The position numbers and the translations under genes are program-made. Positions 1,364 to 5,310 of a stretch of DNA of 5,381 nucleotides are shown here, in pieces (positions within the stretch are counted from its first letter, which is position 1; each line of letters begins with the position of its first letter). This stretch comes from Huberarchaeum crystalense [NCBI: Candidatus Huberarchaeum crystalense]. GTDB taxonomy: Archaea; Huberarchaeota; Huberarchaeia; Huberarchaeales. The stretch is from contig PFUW01000026.1 of the NCBI GenBank assembly GCA_002790315.1, positions 1 to 5,381 of the forward strand. Direction: 5' to 3'. The notes beneath the pieces were generated by a model. It searched no databases. It saw only the letters and a list, made by a program, of their open reading frames with translations, and was not told the DNA's origin.

Positions 1364-1558
1364 AATATATTTGTAATAATTTGGTTGATGTGTGAATTGT
1401 AAAATTAGTGTAAACTAAAATTAGTTGGTGCGTAAATTGTAAAATTAGTTAGTTGATGTGTGAATTGTAAAATTAGTGTAAACTAAAATTAGTTGGTGCG
1501 TAAATTGTAAAATTAGTTATGGTGTAAATTATGGTTGTTAGTAGCATCTAAAAATATT
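1364..1558. promoter_or_regulatory. Divergent intergenic region carrying repeat elements
   Basis: This AT-rich stretch lies between the starts of the CBS gene and the prepilin peptidase and must hold both promoters. Minus-strand ATG is preceded by AATATATT immediately upstream and by AAATTATT a little further back. Before the peptidase ATG, GTAAATTA at about 1523-1530 is the best-placed TATA-like sequence and would leave a leader of only a few bases. Because the repeats are themselves full of TAAATT/TAAAATT, no TATA box can be assigned with certainty. Two short upstream ATGs (1519 and 1531) hit stops at once. Confidence 0.4.
1384..1519. repeat. Two perfect 68-bp tandem direct repeats with internal half-repeats
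   Basis: Copy 1 (1384-1451) and copy 2 (1452-1519) are identical over all 68 positions. Each unit contains a 26-bp element A (1384-1409, 1452-1477), a 14-bp spacer and a 26-bp element B (1424-1449, 1492-1517). A and B differ at only three positions, G/A transitions or their complement, giving a consensus gttgRtgYgtRaattgtaaa followed by attagt. A decayed fifth element can be recognised at about 1521-1542. Each unit also has a small inverted repeat, TTAGT-GTAA-ACTAA (1405-1418 and 1473-1486). The perfect identity suggests recent duplication of an older A-B pair. There are no unique spacers, so this is not a CRISPR array. Confidence 0.95.
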
Positions 1559-2383
1559 ATGTTGTTAGAGATTCCTTATATTATAGCTTTGACATTTGCA
1601 TTGCTTTTTGCATATTATGACTTAAAAAAAGGTGAAGTTGAAAATTGGGTGTCCTATTTACCCCTGGCTTTGGGTATTATGTATTGGTTTGTTGTGTTAT
1701 GGCTATTCTACGAAAATTATTTATTTAATGCAATTGGAGGAGCAATATTACTTTATTTTGTTGGTCTTTTGCTTTATTATTTTGCGGGTCTTGGGGGTGC
1801 AGATGTGAGGTTTTTGGCTGGGCTGGCTGTGCTTCTTCCTGCAACACCACAAACAAACTTGTTATTTGCTGTTCCCCTTGTTTTGCTCTATAATTTCTTT
1901 ATTTTATTGGTTTTTTTGGTTTTAGGACACATAGTTTATCATTTGCGCGACAACAACAAACAAATATTTGCAAATTTTAAGAGTTTTTGCCAAAAAAATT
2001 TTATTTTGGCAGGAGCAATGACTATTTATGCAGTTATTTACTTGTTTTTATTTATTTACTTTAACTTATTCGCATTTTTGCTCGGATTTATTCTTGTTTG
2101 CTCAACACTCATAGCAATGTCACAACAAGACCTATTTACAGCAAAAATTAATGTTAAAACAGCAAAATACGCTAATTTGAAAGGTAAAGAACTCAGCCAG
2201 GCTATTATAAAAAATGGAAAAATCATCGCGCCCGCATGGTCAAAAATAACCCCTTTTTTATTGAATTTATTAAAGCAAGAAAAGGTGAACTTTATTTTTA
2301 TAAAAAGCTCGTCTTTGCCAGTAGGAATTATTTTTCCATTGCTTGTGATATTTACTTATTTTTTTGGGGCAATTGGTTTCTAA
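1559..2383 (+). CDS. Archaeal prepilin (class III signal) peptidase, A24 family
   Basis: A 274-residue integral membrane aspartic protease that would cleave the short signal of type IV pilin-like or archaellin precursors on the cytoplasmic face of the membrane. The catalytic pair is visible: Asp21 in YYDLKKGEVENW after the first membrane segment, and Asp82 in GLGGADVRFLAGLA. Their spacing of 61 residues equals that known for FlaK (Asp18/Asp79). The second motif is GGAD rather than the bacterial GxGD, a variant I associate with archaeal members. Hydrophobic segments lie at about 5-19, 33-50, 55-76, 83-94, 101-124, 150-190 and 253-273, with a polar lysine-rich loop near 192-245. I chose ATG 1559 over TTG 1535, which would add eight residues before the first membrane helix and lies in the repeat-derived region. 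No Shine-Dalgarno is present. Whether it serves pili, archaella or a secretion system cannot be told from sequence. The last three codons and stop form the first unit of a downstream tandem array. Confidence 0.9.
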   Translation: MLLEIPYIIALTFALLFAYYDLKKGEVENWVSYLPLALGIMYWFVVLWLFYENYLFNAIGGAILLYFVGLLLYYFAGLGGADVRFLAGLAVLLPATPQTNLLFAVPLVLLYNFFILLVFLVLGHIVYHLRDNNKQIFANFKSFCQKNFILAGAMTIYAVIYLFLFIYFNLFAFLLGFILVCSTLIAMSQQDLFTAKINVKTAKYANLKGKELSQAIIKNGKIIAPAWSKITPFLLNLLKQEKVNFIFIKSSSLPVGIIFPLLVIFTYFFGAIGF

Positions 2384-2390
2384 AAAGAAT

Positions 2391-2429
2391 ATGGCTGTCT
2401 TACACTTTTCTCTAAATATTGGTTTCTAA
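2391..2429 (+). CDS. 12-residue mini-ORF, first repeat unit
   Basis: ATG to TAA encodes MAVLHFSLNIGF. It begins 7 bases after the peptidase stop and ends 7 bases before the next identical mini-ORF. Its first five residues match the 33-residue microprotein and its last three copy the C-terminus of the peptidase, so it is a by-product of the 46-bp duplication. Translation is not shown. If it occurs, it would most plausibly be by termination-reinitiation from the peptidase. The peptide may have no function itself and act only as a relay. Confidence 0.3.
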   Translation: MAVLHFSLNIGF

Positions 2430-2436
2430 AAAGAAT

Positions 2437-2475
2437 ATGGCTGTCTTACACTTTTCTCTAAATATTGGTTTCTAA
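2437..2475 (+). CDS. 12-residue mini-ORF, second repeat unit
   Basis: Identical in sequence to the mini-ORF 46 bases upstream (MAVLHFSLNIGF). Its TAA lies 7 bases before the ATG of the 33-residue microprotein, so a terminating ribosome would be delivered directly to that start. The open frame is certain. Expression is unproven. Confidence 0.3.
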   Translation: MAVLHFSLNIGF

Positions 2476-2482
2476 AAAGAAT

Positions 2483-2584
2483 ATGGCTGTCTTACACCTT
2501 CCTCCTAAAATCATTGCTATTATTATTTTTGTGATTATAGTTTTTAGTTTTTGCTTGTATGTACTTTTATCTCACTTTTTATAA
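2483..2584 (+). CDS. 33-residue single-pass membrane microprotein
   Basis: A short open frame from ATG 2483 to TAA 2582-2584. It starts MAVLHLPPK and continues with an uninterrupted hydrophobic segment at about residues 10-30 that contains one Cys (24), with Lys9 as its only fully charged residue. This is a typical one-helix membrane microprotein. By the positive-inside rule the N-terminus would be cytosolic. Support for it being real: it sits exactly between the peptidase array and the 76-residue gene with gaps of 7 and 6 bases, its hydrophobic composition is sustained to the stop, and its start has the same context as the next gene. I recognise no family. There is no pilin cleavage motif. 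It could be a subunit or regulator of the peptidase or secretion machine (inference). There is no Shine-Dalgarno, so translation by coupling is likely. Confidence 0.55.
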   Translation: MAVLHLPPKIIAIIIFVIIVFSFCLYVLLSHFL

Positions 2585-2590
2585 AACAAT

Positions 2591-2821
2591 ATGGCTGATG
2601 AAAAAAATGATATTGTTCTGGTTCTTGTAGTGTTAGTAATTATAGTAATATTATTATTTATTCTTATTAATTTCCTCAACAATACTGCGCCAGGATTTAT
2701 AAAGTTTGTTTTGTATAGTATTAATGGTCTTTTTACAACCATAATAAATATGTTTGGCGCAGGTTTAGGAGTATTGAAGACAATTGTAGATATTATTACT
2801 TGGCCATTTAAACAATTTTAG
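2591..2821 (+). CDS. Small membrane protein, 76 residues, unknown function
   Basis: The protein begins with an acidic/basic stretch (MADEKND), followed by a strongly hydrophobic helix at about residues 8-29. A turn with N30-N31 and P34-G35 leads to a second hydrophobic or amphipathic stretch (37-72) rich in Ile, Phe and Gly, with Lys38 and Lys63, ending WPFKQF. I recognise no family. It lacks the Gly/Ala-preceded basic cleavage site and class III signal logic expected of a prepilin, so I do not call it a pilin, although its size and position beside a prepilin peptidase and assembly ATPase make an accessory role in that machine plausible. The start is 6 bases after the microprotein stop, with no Shine-Dalgarno, in a context (TAAAACAATATGGCTG) nearly matching the repeat junctions upstream. 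The stop codon lies inside a 9-bp inverted repeat preceding the tRNA gene. Confidence 0.75.
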   Translation: MADEKNDIVLVLVVLVIIVILLFILINFLNNTAPGFIKFVLYSINGLFTTIINMFGAGLGVLKTIVDIITWPFKQF

Positions 2822-2937: not shown

Positions 2938-5310
2938 ATGGAAGATGAAAAAGAAAAACAAAACACTCTTAAAAATAAAAATTTATCCCAGGGTTCTAAA
3001 AGTTCTATGTCTGATGTTGTAAAGTCCAGTATAGATTCGCTCCAAGTCCCGCAAACAGATATTTTGCAAATATTACCATATATTATCGAAAAAGACAAAT
3101 CAGGTGCAATTCTAAAAATAAATTTTCACAATACTTTTCAATTTGCTTCAATTGAACATTCTGATTTTGCAATGGAACAAGTGCTTCGCATTCTTGAATT
3201 AGTAGGCAGTGTTAGCAAGATTGTACTTTCAAAGCAAATGGAATTTGAATATCCTCCAGAGCAAACAGCAATGCTAAATGATTTTATAGATGTAATTAAT
3301 TATTTAAAAAAATCATATAATGTTCTCGATCTAATACCACAGTACCAAACCCAACCAGAATATCTTGTATTGTTTTTTCAATTTCGCCACATCCTTGAAA
3401 AAATCATATATTCACATCCCATAATTGCATACACACACATCAACAAGATGCGACGAGATATAATCTACAAAGTTCAATATACAAAAGATGAGTTTAAAGA
3501 TATGCATTTAGCATTTATAGACAAACACTTAACACCTTCCCTAAATCTTTTAGAAAAAACGCAAATAATTAAAAAAATAAAAGATTCTTTGCCTGGTTAT
3601 GTTGGTTCGCGGGACATCTATACTACTATTTTTCATCCGCTCATAAGGCCAAGCTTTATATACACAAATATCCAACTTAAGCCTTCTGAAGATGCTATAG
3701 AAATAAATAGCTATTCAGTTGACAATGTTAAAGTGTCAATATATAAAATTAAAGATGATATCAATTATATTTATTCAATCGAGCCGCAAGAGTATTTTTT
3801 AAGCGACACAGAATATAATATTTTAAACGAAGCCCGCAGAATCATTAGCGAATATAAACCTTTTGAAAAAAGTAGCAATGTTCAATCTGAAATGAGAAAT
3901 ATATTTTCTAGCATAATTTTGAATGTGTTAATTGAGCTAAATAAAAAATATAATTCATCATTCTCTTACGAAAATTTGTTAAAATTAAGAGCTATTTTGG
4001 TGCGCGAAACAGTTGGTTTTGGGATTATAGAAGTAATTTCAAATGACCCTAAAATCCAAGACATATATATAAATGCTCCTGCTGGAACTAAGCCAATATA
4101 TGTTAACCACTCAATATATGGCGAATGTAAAACAAATATAGTCCCAACTATTTATGATCTGACTGCATGGGTTACTAAACTAAAAATGTTGTCAAACCGC
4201 CCGCTTGATGAATCAGTCCCAACACTCGATACATATCTTAACTTTCCTCCAAATACAAGAGTAAGAATAGCTGTTACCCACCCTCCTTTAAATGCTTATG
4301 GTATAGGATTAACCATACGTCGCCATAGAAGTAATCCTTGGACTTTGCCTTTATTTATAAAAAATAAGATGATTAATTCTTTAGGTGCTGCGATTATTTC
4401 TTTTTTTGTGGATTATTCATCAACTTTTTTAGTTGCAGGAACGCGTGGAAGCGGAAAAACATCTTTTTTATCATCAATGATTTTTCAAGTGTTGAACAAA
4501 CATCGATTTATTATTGTAGAAGATACACGCGAAATTGATGTTGACACTATGCGAAAAAATGGTTATAATGTTGAAAGTTTGCAAGCACAATCACCTATTA
4601 TTCAAACAGGCACAGAGTTGCCGGTTTCATCTGCCATAAGAGTATCTTTAAGGTTGGGTGATTCTGCGTTGATACTTGGAGAAGTCAGAAGTGAAGAAGC
4701 AATCACATTATATGAGGCAATGCGCGTAGGTGCTCTTGCAAATATTGTCGGCGGAACAATCCATGGAGATTCTCCTTATGGTGTTTTTGACAGGGTAGTA
4801 AATGACTTGCACGTGCCAATTACAAGTTTTAAAGCAACAGACATAATTGTGATTACTAGTATAATAAAATCACCTGGCGGACTAAAAAAAGAACGGCGCG
4901 TAACACGAATTACAGAAGTGAGAAAACGATGGACAACAGACCCTGTAAAAGAAAACGCTTTTGTTGATTTGATGGTGTATAACGCAGAAACCGACGAGCT
5001 TGAGCCAACAGATGCGCTGCAATCAGGAGATAGTGAAATTATAAAAAGAATTTCAAGCAATGTTGTTGTGTGGAAAAATGATTGGAATTTTGTTTGGGGG
5101 GACATTATGCTTAGAAAAGCGTGGTTTGATGAACTTGTAAAAATAGGCAACTTATCCCCTGAAATGTTAGAATCTAATTTTTATGTAACTGCTAATAGCG
5201 CTTTTCACAATATTTATGAAAATAAAACAACAGCATTGGGCTATATTAATTATGATGAAATTTTTAGAGATCTAATGCACTGGTTAGAGTTAAAAAAGGA
5301 AAAGACATAA
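2938..5310 (+). CDS. Type II/IV secretion or pilus assembly ATPase (VirB11/FlaI/GspE class)
   Basis: A 790-residue hexameric ATPase of the secretion superfamily, expected at the cytoplasmic face where it drives pilus, archaellum-like or secretion assembly with a TadC/FlaJ-type platform protein. Residues 1-40 are Lys/Ser-rich and probably disordered. About 40-340 is a large, mostly helical lineage-specific region. The family N-terminal domain runs about 345-480 (VGFGIIEVI from 359, RVRIAVTHPP from 441, TIRRHR at 459-464). The catalytic domain has all key motifs: Walker A GTRGSGKT (501-508, Lys507), Asp box VEDTREID (527-534), Walker B LILGEVR with Glu582, and His box GGTIHGD with His609. A C-terminal part of about 130 residues follows, with no tetracysteine zinc module, unlike GspE. 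At 790 residues it is longer than typical FlaI (about 550) because of the N-terminal region. The ATG at 2938 has no Shine-Dalgarno and lies 18 bases after the tRNA. Met24 (3007) is an alternative. The platform gene is expected downstream but is not in the window. Confidence 0.93.
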   Translation: MEDEKEKQNTLKNKNLSQGSKSSMSDVVKSSIDSLQVPQTDILQILPYIIEKDKSGAILKINFHNTFQFASIEHSDFAMEQVLRILELVGSVSKIVLSKQMEFEYPPEQTAMLNDFIDVINYLKKSYNVLDLIPQYQTQPEYLVLFFQFRHILEKIIYSHPIIAYTHINKMRRDIIYKVQYTKDEFKDMHLAFIDKHLTPSLNLLEKTQIIKKIKDSLPGYVGSRDIYTTIFHPLIRPSFIYTNIQLKPSEDAIEINSYSVDNVKVSIYKIKDDINYIYSIEPQEYFLSDTEYNILNEARRIISEYKPFEKSSNVQSEMRNIFSSIILNVLIELNKKYNSSFSYENLLKLRAILVRETVGFGIIEVISNDPKIQDIYINAPAGTKPIYVNHSIYGECKTNIVPTIYDLTAWVTKLKMLSNRPLDESVPTLDTYLNFPPNTRVRIAVTHPPLNAYGIGLTIRRHRSNPWTLPLFIKNKMINSLGAAIISFFVDYSSTFLVAGTRGSGKTSFLSSMIFQVLNKHRFIIVEDTREIDVDTMRKNGYNVESLQAQSPIIQTGTELPVSSAIRVSLRLGDSALILGEVRSEEAITLYEAMRVGALANIVGGTIHGDSPYGVFDRVVNDLHVPITSFKATDIIVITSIIKSPGGLKKERRVTRITEVRKRWTTDPVKENAFVDLMVYNAETDELEPTDALQSGDSEIIKRISSNVVVWKNDWNFVWGDIMLRKAWFDELVKIGNLSPEMLESNFYVTANSAFHNIYENKTTALGYINYDEIFRDLMHWLELKKEKT

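What the first reader, a model, noticed from the sequence alone, without database searches (positions are those of the whole stretch)
2372..2497. Tandem array of stop-start mini-cistrons between the prepilin peptidase and a microprotein
The 46-bp unit carries a peptidase-derived stop, a 7-base spacer and a new ATG, so each extra copy adds a complete 12-residue cistron (39 + 7 = 46 bases). Because the unit is self-contained, gain or loss of copies never disrupts the peptidase or the downstream protein. It only changes the number of termination-reinitiation steps before the next gene. Such an array could tune downstream translation by copy number. The layout is seen directly; the tuning role is inference. 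A simple neutral slippage duplication is the alternative.
Basis: partly seen in the sequence, partly recalled or inferred. Interest (0 to 1): 0.62.

Follow-up and report, generated by a model that had tools for sequence, protein, structure and literature searches.

The report
Slippage repeat across a gene junction
In a tiny uncultured archaeon, a 46-base stretch spanning the end of one gene and the start of the next has been copied head to tail, making short mini-genes as a by-product; the copy number differs between two assemblies, and it looks like one of many tandem repeats in this genome rather than a proven dial for gene output.

Summary
The array is real: three head-to-tail copies of a 46-bp unit at 2372-2509, giving two complete 12-codon mini-ORFs (MAVLHFSLNIGF) before a 33-codon ORF. 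The window belongs to Candidatus Huberarchaeum crystalense: 99.97% identical over 2,964 bp to PFSX01000036.1 (L001), which has two copies. In the one genome available, G001, the unit occurs at this locus only. A 169-kb sample of G001 is rich in arrays: 29 strong ones, against 7 in 332 kb of 30 comparison loci. Two of those 29 also make closed mini-ORFs from a duplicated gene start. A third of simulated duplications across this junction end the mini-ORF exactly at the copied stop, so the neat closure needs no design.

Each copied ATG carries this genome's own start context (A-rich at -9 to -5, T at -1) and scores above 88% of 123 predicted gene starts. Translation of the mini-ORFs is plausible; neither it nor tuning by copy number is shown.

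Verdict: a tandem repeat tolerated at a gene junction, mini-cistrons as by-products. The closest published parallel found, the mycobacterial MIRU, fails two membership tests (not dispersed, no -4 overlap).

The parts
1559..2383 (+). prepilin peptidase (Pfam Peptidase_A24, PF01478); its last three codons and stop begin each repeat unit
   Evidence: Pfam E 1.9e-09; ATG 1559 has a better start context than TTG 1535 (7.06 vs -1.76)
2372..2417 (+). repeat unit copy 1: end of peptidase, TAA 2381-2383, 7-nt spacer, ATG 2391
2391..2429 (+). mini-ORF 1, MAVLHFSLNIGF, 12 codons plus stop
   Evidence: sequence; start context score 6.87; translation not shown
2418..2463 (+). repeat unit copy 2, identical to copy 1; L001 has one copy fewer
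2437..2475 (+). mini-ORF 2, identical 12-codon frame
   Evidence: sequence; translation not shown
2464..2509 (+). repeat unit copy 3, first 34 nt identical to the others, 3' end different; opens the 33-codon ORF
2483..2584 (+). 33-codon hydrophobic ORF (one membrane segment by inspection), probably a real microprotein
   Evidence: best of its three frames by codon score (-1.1 vs -16.1 and -13.5 bits) but weak in absolute terms (17.9% of 246 spurious ORFs score as high; 5.3% of true-gene segments score as low); strong start context; no Pfam match; no relative with E below 0.04 in the comparison loci
2591..2821 (+). 76-aa hydrophobic protein, 6 nt after the microprotein stop
   Evidence: no Pfam match
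1384..1519 (+). second tandem array, 68-bp unit, 2 copies, upstream of the peptidase; arranged differently in L001

Best explanation
A tandem duplication arose, probably by replication slippage or template switching, in a 46-bp segment that spans the stop codon of the prepilin peptidase and the start codon of a small downstream ORF, and has since gained or lost a copy. It is tolerated because a duplication across a stop-start junction leaves both genes whole, whatever its length. The mini-cistrons are a by-product: copying the junction copies the stop and the start, and one time in three the copied stop falls in frame. Ribosomes probably do start at some of the copied ATGs, because each carries the genome's own start context, so a modest effect on the 33-codon ORF is possible. 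No evidence shows that copy number is used to tune anything. Shown: the array, the copy-number difference between two assemblies, the load of other arrays, the start context. Inferred: slippage as the cause, neutrality, translation of the mini-ORFs.
For: Array structure. Window and PFSX01000036.1 differ by one copy and by one substitution in the 2,964-bp right-hand alignment, and are identical over the 963-bp left-hand one; the substitution is a silent Leu codon change by inspection. The unit occurs at one locus in G001. Strong arrays (period >=25, >=90% match, score >=100): 29 in 169,425 bp of G001, 7 in 331,766 bp of 30 comparison loci, 0 in simulated sequence. Of 76 arrays of period >=15, 47 are mostly non-coding, although ORFs cover 146,900 of 169,425 bases. 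Arrays inside ORFs have periods in multiples of 3 in 19 of 24 cases, the others in 20 of 52; among the strong ones 6 of 6 against 8 of 23. Short closed frames in a unit are common: 12 of the 29 strong sample arrays show one on either strand by the consensus unit. Two arrays duplicate a gene start with a closed mini-ORF, L042 522-650 and L047 3158-3355. In simulation 33.5% of 2,268 junction-spanning duplications close at the copied stop.
Against: The first 34 nt of the unit are identical in all three copies while the tail of the last copy differs, which plain decay after duplication would not predict. Closed mini-ORFs from a duplicated start recur at three loci (this one, L042, L047), which could hint at a use. 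The copied ATGs have an unusually good start context. Only two assemblies of the species could be compared. Two of the six strong in-ORF arrays lie in short ORFs that may be spurious, and open-frame prediction itself favours periods divisible by 3.
Confidence: 0.77

Rival explanations
1. Copy-number rheostat: ribosomes terminating on the peptidase reinitiate 7 nt downstream, translate each mini-cistron in turn and lose a fraction at each step, so that extra copies lower (or, with fresh initiation at each ATG, raise) output of the microprotein. Slippage supplies reversible variation.
For: A 7-nt spacer is shorter than the distances that abolish reinitiation in Haloferax volcanii (60% loss at 13 nt, none left at 22 nt in one gene pair; PMC10666635 section 5). 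Each copied ATG has a near-consensus start context. Copy number differs between two assemblies.
Against: No expression data. The same paper concludes in its abstract that coupling requires short overlaps and that scanning by the post-termination ribosome is rare, and sees no set of pairs near +10 nt in H. volcanii. Closure of the mini-ORF is expected one time in three. Most arrays in the sample have no such arrangement. RNA folding shows nothing unusual (z 0.83).
Confidence: 0.11
2. Assembly artefact: the number of copies, or the array itself, was made by the assembler.
For: Reads in the time series were 150 bp (PMC6792436, passage) and the longest exact repeat in the window array is 80 nt, so the count of three depends on k-mer size. 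Contigs of G001 often end near arrays: 11 of 37 ends lie within 60 bp of one.
Against: Two assemblies both hold the array, with a private substitution between them. In L001 the longest exact repeat is only 34 nt, well within a read. The third copy differs in its tail, so it is not a plain duplicate.
Confidence: 0.06
3. DNA-level or promoter element: the repeat adds copies of an A-rich box, with a TATA-like CTAAATAT formed at each unit boundary, so that copies act as extra transcription starts for the downstream ORFs.
For: The A-box is strongest at starts with their own upstream space (68%, 79% and 83% with 4 or more A of 5, n = 44, 48, 12) and weaker inside operons (46%, n = 26), as a promoter-linked signal would be. 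TATA-like words are commoner upstream of A-box starts (n = 93) than of the others (n = 41).
Against: By my count the TATA-like stretch lies at about -26 to -18 of the ATG, too close for a leaderless start by the usual archaeal spacing (recalled). TATA-like words show no sharp position.
Confidence: 0.04
4. The 12-residue peptide itself is the product and is amplified by repetition.
For: Two identical copies in the window.
Against: Codon score of the mini-ORF is that of spurious frames (-0.23 per codon; mean of 246 spurious ORFs -0.22). Its last three residues are the peptidase's C-terminus read in the same frame.
Confidence: 0.02

Closest known systems
Mycobacterial interspersed repetitive units (MIRU), as in senX3-regX3
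   Same: Short units, several in a row, between co-directed genes; an ORF in the unit can couple to the next gene; the units at senX3-regX3 differ between two strains (passages of PMC12548453, and of PMC4213456).
   Different: MIRUs are described as apparently mobile and as inserting at start codons with a -4 nt spacing. This unit is confined to one locus of G001, was copied from the junction it sits in, and has a +7 nt spacer.
Intergenic VNTR / minisatellite-type tandem repeats of prokaryotes (recalled as a class)
   Same: Head-to-tail repeat of tens of bases, with copy number differing between strains.
   Different: Nothing essential; the unit happens to span a stop-start junction.
Translational coupling by termination-reinitiation in archaea (Haloferax volcanii; PMC10666635, abstract and section 5)
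   Same: Co-directed ORFs with a short intergenic distance.
   Different: Coupling there was measured; here it is not shown. The commonest spacings there are overlaps of 4 or 1 nt, here it is +7.
Short upstream ORFs that deliver ribosomes to the next gene (PMC12548453, passages)
   Same: A short ORF ends just before the start of a longer one.
   Different: Here the short ORF is a duplicate of the junction, repeated, and present in variable number.

Membership tests
Intergenic VNTR | head-to-tail tandem copies | tested here: met
   3 copies of 46 bp
Intergenic VNTR | copy number varies within the species | tested here: met
   3 copies in the window, 2 in L001; two assemblies only, no reads
MIRU | dispersed family at many loci | tested here: not met
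   one locus in G001 by DNA search and by a 25-base pattern with up to 3 mismatches
MIRU | ORF of the unit overlaps the next start by 4 nt | tested here: not met
   spacer is +7 nt
MIRU | ORF-bearing units in a row between co-directed genes, variable between strains | tested here: met
Termination-reinitiation coupled genes | intergenic distance short enough for reinitiation | tested here: inconclusive
   7 nt is below the 13 nt (60% loss) and 22 nt (none left) tested in one Haloferax pair, but the abstract holds that overlaps are required; transfer to this lineage is inference
Termination-reinitiation coupled genes | downstream translation depends on upstream translation | not testable with these tools
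   needs reporters or ribosome data
Regulatory uORF array | arrangement conserved across species | tested here: inconclusive
   only G001 was returned for the phylum; no relative of the microprotein with E below 0.04 in the comparison loci

The most novel reading that the evidence does not exclude
Huberarchaeum uses frequent slippage at gene starts as a reversible expression dial: duplications that copy a gene's start site make trains of mini-cistrons (seen here, at L042 522-650 and at L047 3158-3355), here with the genome's own start signal in every copy, and strains differ in how many ribosome stops precede the gene (a difference seen so far at this locus only).
Probability: 0.08. Interest if true: 0.72.

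Novelty: new member of a known kind. Interest (0 to 1): 0.3.

Why it matters
As a single array it is ordinary: a tandem repeat at a place where repeats do no harm. It matters a little more as a marker. Its copy number separates two otherwise near-identical assemblies of an uncultured archaeon, so it could track strains in the Crystal Geyser time series. The array load and the A-box start context give a simple way to ask whether repeat number affects expression in a reduced archaeal genome.

Tried and rejected
Dispersed repeat or mobile unit: rejected, a single locus in G001; no exact match of a 29-base piece in viral contigs. Viral origin of the locus: no relative of the ATPase in viral contigs. 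Structured RNA: no Rfam match above the gathering scores except the tRNA; folding no better than shuffles (160 of 200 fold at least as well). Conservation in relatives: among the 30 comparison loci the peptidase finds one weak relative (L022 7671-8507, E 9.7e-06, which lies downstream of that locus's ATPase), and the microprotein and the 76-aa protein none with E below 0.04, so selection on the junction could not be tested; several of these loci hold less than 6 kb upstream. Other Huberarchaeota: only G001 was returned; the describers report 11 genomes of the species (PMC6792436, passage), which I could not reach. Shine-Dalgarno initiation: no SD-like word in the unit; genome-wide some SD signal remains (AGGA at -15 to -4 in 11 of 147 starts against 1.5 expected), and the 16S gene keeps the usual anti-SD end. 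TRF did not list the 2-copy version of this array in L033, so array counts are lower bounds. A consensus-based closed frame at L045 10158-10241 was not borne out by the actual sequence (overlap of 11 nt). Literature: searches for Huberarchae plus tandem repeat (one paper, judged unrelated from its title and abstract), for repeat, ORF and reinitiation terms (4 papers, judged unrelated from the listing) and for start-context terms (none) showed no report of this array or of the A-box in this lineage; of the 32 papers naming Huberarchae (30 listed) I looked into one. Only the held open-access library was searched.

Full report
What is there. The window holds a tandem array at 2372-2509: two identical 46-bp copies and a third whose 3' end differs. 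Each copy begins with the last three codons of a prepilin peptidase (Pfam Peptidase_A24, E 1.9e-09) and its TAA, followed by 7 nt and ATG. The first two ATGs (2391, 2437) open 12-codon frames, MAVLHFSLNIGF, that end at the next copied TAA. The third (2483) opens a 33-codon hydrophobic frame that ends at 2584, six bases before a 76-aa ORF. A tRNA-Gly and an ATPase with a T2SSE domain follow.

Whose genome. A search with the ATPase found PFSX01000036.1 (L001), Candidatus Huberarchaeum crystalense, at 100% protein identity. The taxonomy places the genus in Candidatus Huberarchaeota, Nanobdellati. Its describers estimated a genome of about 0.5 Mbp (PMC6792436, passages). The window matches L001 at 99.97% over 2,964 bp (2418 to the end) and at 100% over 963 bp (1489-2451).

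Copy number. L001 has two copies of the unit where the window has three (a unit word starts at 962 and 1008, against 2375, 2421 and 2467). The only substitution in the right-hand 2,964-bp alignment lies in the last copy and is silent in the 33-codon frame (CTT to CTC, by inspection). The array at 1384-1519 is also arranged differently in L001. So copy number differs between two assemblies of the same species. Reads were not available. The longest exact repeat is 80 nt in the window and 34 nt in L001; the time-series reads were 150 bp, so both repeats fit within a read, but the three-copy count is the less secure.

Not a dispersed repeat. A 261-base query over the array matches one place in G001, the genome of L001, and a 25-base piece of the unit finds only the two copies in that place with up to 3 mismatches.

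A genome with many arrays. In 169,425 bp of G001 (20 contigs, part of about 500 kb), 76 arrays of period 15 or more were found: 47 mostly non-coding, 5 mixed and 24 coding, although ORFs cover 146,900 bases. Strong arrays number 29, or 17.1 per 100 kb, against 7 (2.1 per 100 kb) in 331,766 bp of loci L002-L031, whose A+T is 67.0% against 68.4%, and none in simulated sequence. Those 30 loci were selected by their ATPase, not at random; 27 are named as DPANN archaea and 3 are filed as bacteria. Of 37 contig ends in the sample, 11 lie within 60 bp of an array, while arrays hold 4.6% of bases. L001's left end lies in the upstream array, and the window's last base corresponds to L001 3922, just inside the array that TRF places at 3919-4077. 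Arrays inside ORFs have periods in multiples of three in 19 of 24 cases, the others in 20 of 52; among strong arrays 6 of 6 against 8 of 23. Two of those six lie in short ORFs that may be spurious, and open-frame prediction favours this result. The picture is of duplications arising widely and surviving where they do no harm.

Mini-cistrons elsewhere. By consensus units, 12 of the 29 strong sample arrays hold some short closed frame (3 codons or more, 0-25 nt before the next ATG) on one strand or the other, besides the window array. I read five arrays that touch a gene start. L042 522-650 (minus strand) has a 65-bp unit over a stop-TA-ATG junction and gives one 20-codon mini-ORF, 2 nt before the next ATG. 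L047 3158-3355 has a 66-bp unit, three copies, and two 12-codon mini-ORFs, each 27 nt before the next ATG. At L045 10158-10241 a start is also duplicated, but the short frame overlaps the next ATG by 11 nt. In the two arrays of L037 (9007, 12867) the gene's start is not duplicated in a clean form. So the arrangement recurs, and it is not always closed.

Is the closure special? I rebuilt the empty junction and duplicated every segment of 25-80 nt that covers both the stop and the ATG. In 33.5% of 2,268 cases the mini-ORF ends exactly at the copied stop; in 58.6% it runs past the next ATG. The observed closure is a one-in-three event. That both neighbours remain intact is true of every such duplication.

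Could the mini-ORFs be translated? Probably, at some level. In 123 predicted gene starts of the sample, excluding this locus, A is found at -9 to -5 in 72, 78, 71, 59 and 83% and T at -1 in 72%; in 277 starts from the 30 comparison loci A at these positions is 35-44% and T at -1 is 34%. The 16S gene retains the usual anti-SD end, CACCTCCT, and some starts keep SD-like words. Each copied ATG (TCTAAAAAGAAT-ATG) scores 6.87, above 88% of gene starts; about 0.1% of 2,055 internal ATGs reach this. The last two bases of the peptidase's stop codon form part of the A-box. Inside operons the box is weaker (46% with 4 or more A of 5, n = 26) than at other starts (68-83%), so it may be a ribosome signal or linked to transcription starts; the data do not settle it. 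A comparable case is Flavobacterium, whose mRNAs lack SD while the ribosome keeps the anti-SD (PMC6847099, abstract).

Effect on the next gene. In Haloferax volcanii reinitiation falls by 60% at 13 nt and is gone at 22 nt in one gene pair (PMC10666635, section 5). A 7-nt spacer might allow coupling, and each extra step would then cost some ribosomes; but the same authors conclude that coupling requires short overlaps (abstract). There are no expression data for this locus, and folding of the region is ordinary (z 0.83).

The microprotein. The 33-codon frame has no Pfam match and no relative with E below 0.04 in the comparison loci. It scores best in its own frame (-1.1 against -16.1 and -13.5 bits), but weakly: 17.9% of 246 spurious ORFs score as high, and 5.3% of true-gene segments score as low. 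With the strong start context it is probably a gene, not certainly.

An unexplained detail. The first 34 nt of the unit are the same in all three copies, while the tail of the last copy differs by several changes. Random decay would not be so uneven. Conversion among copies, or a filler made when the first duplication arose, could explain it.

Compared with what is known. The nearest published parallel I found is the MIRU of mycobacteria: ORF-bearing units between co-directed genes, differing between strains at senX3-regX3 (passages). The present unit is not a MIRU: it is not dispersed and has no -4 overlap. As a tandem repeat with variable copy number it is a new member of a known kind.

Noticed in passing
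L034-L052 (sample of the Huberarchaeum genome G001): Predicted gene starts share a phase-locked context: A-rich box at -9 to -5 and T at -1, with only a small Shine-Dalgarno signal although the 16S keeps its anti-SD end; starts in 30 comparison loci lack it.
   Followed up: partly
L033-L052: High load of tandem arrays, many near-identical, with periods of 25-77 bp: about eight times the density of the comparison loci.
   Followed up: partly
window 1384-1519: A 68-bp tandem array upstream of the peptidase also differs in arrangement between the window and L001.
   Followed up: partly
L042 522-650 and L047 3158-3355: Two further tandem arrays that duplicate a gene start and create short closed ORFs ahead of it.
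   Followed up: partly
window 1535-1559: The peptidase probably starts at ATG 1559 rather than TTG 1535, judged by the start context.
   Followed up: yes
L013, L014, L026: Contigs filed under Chloroflexi or 'bacterium' carry an ATPase 41-50% identical to this archaeal one, which may mean misbinned archaeal contigs.
   Followed up: no
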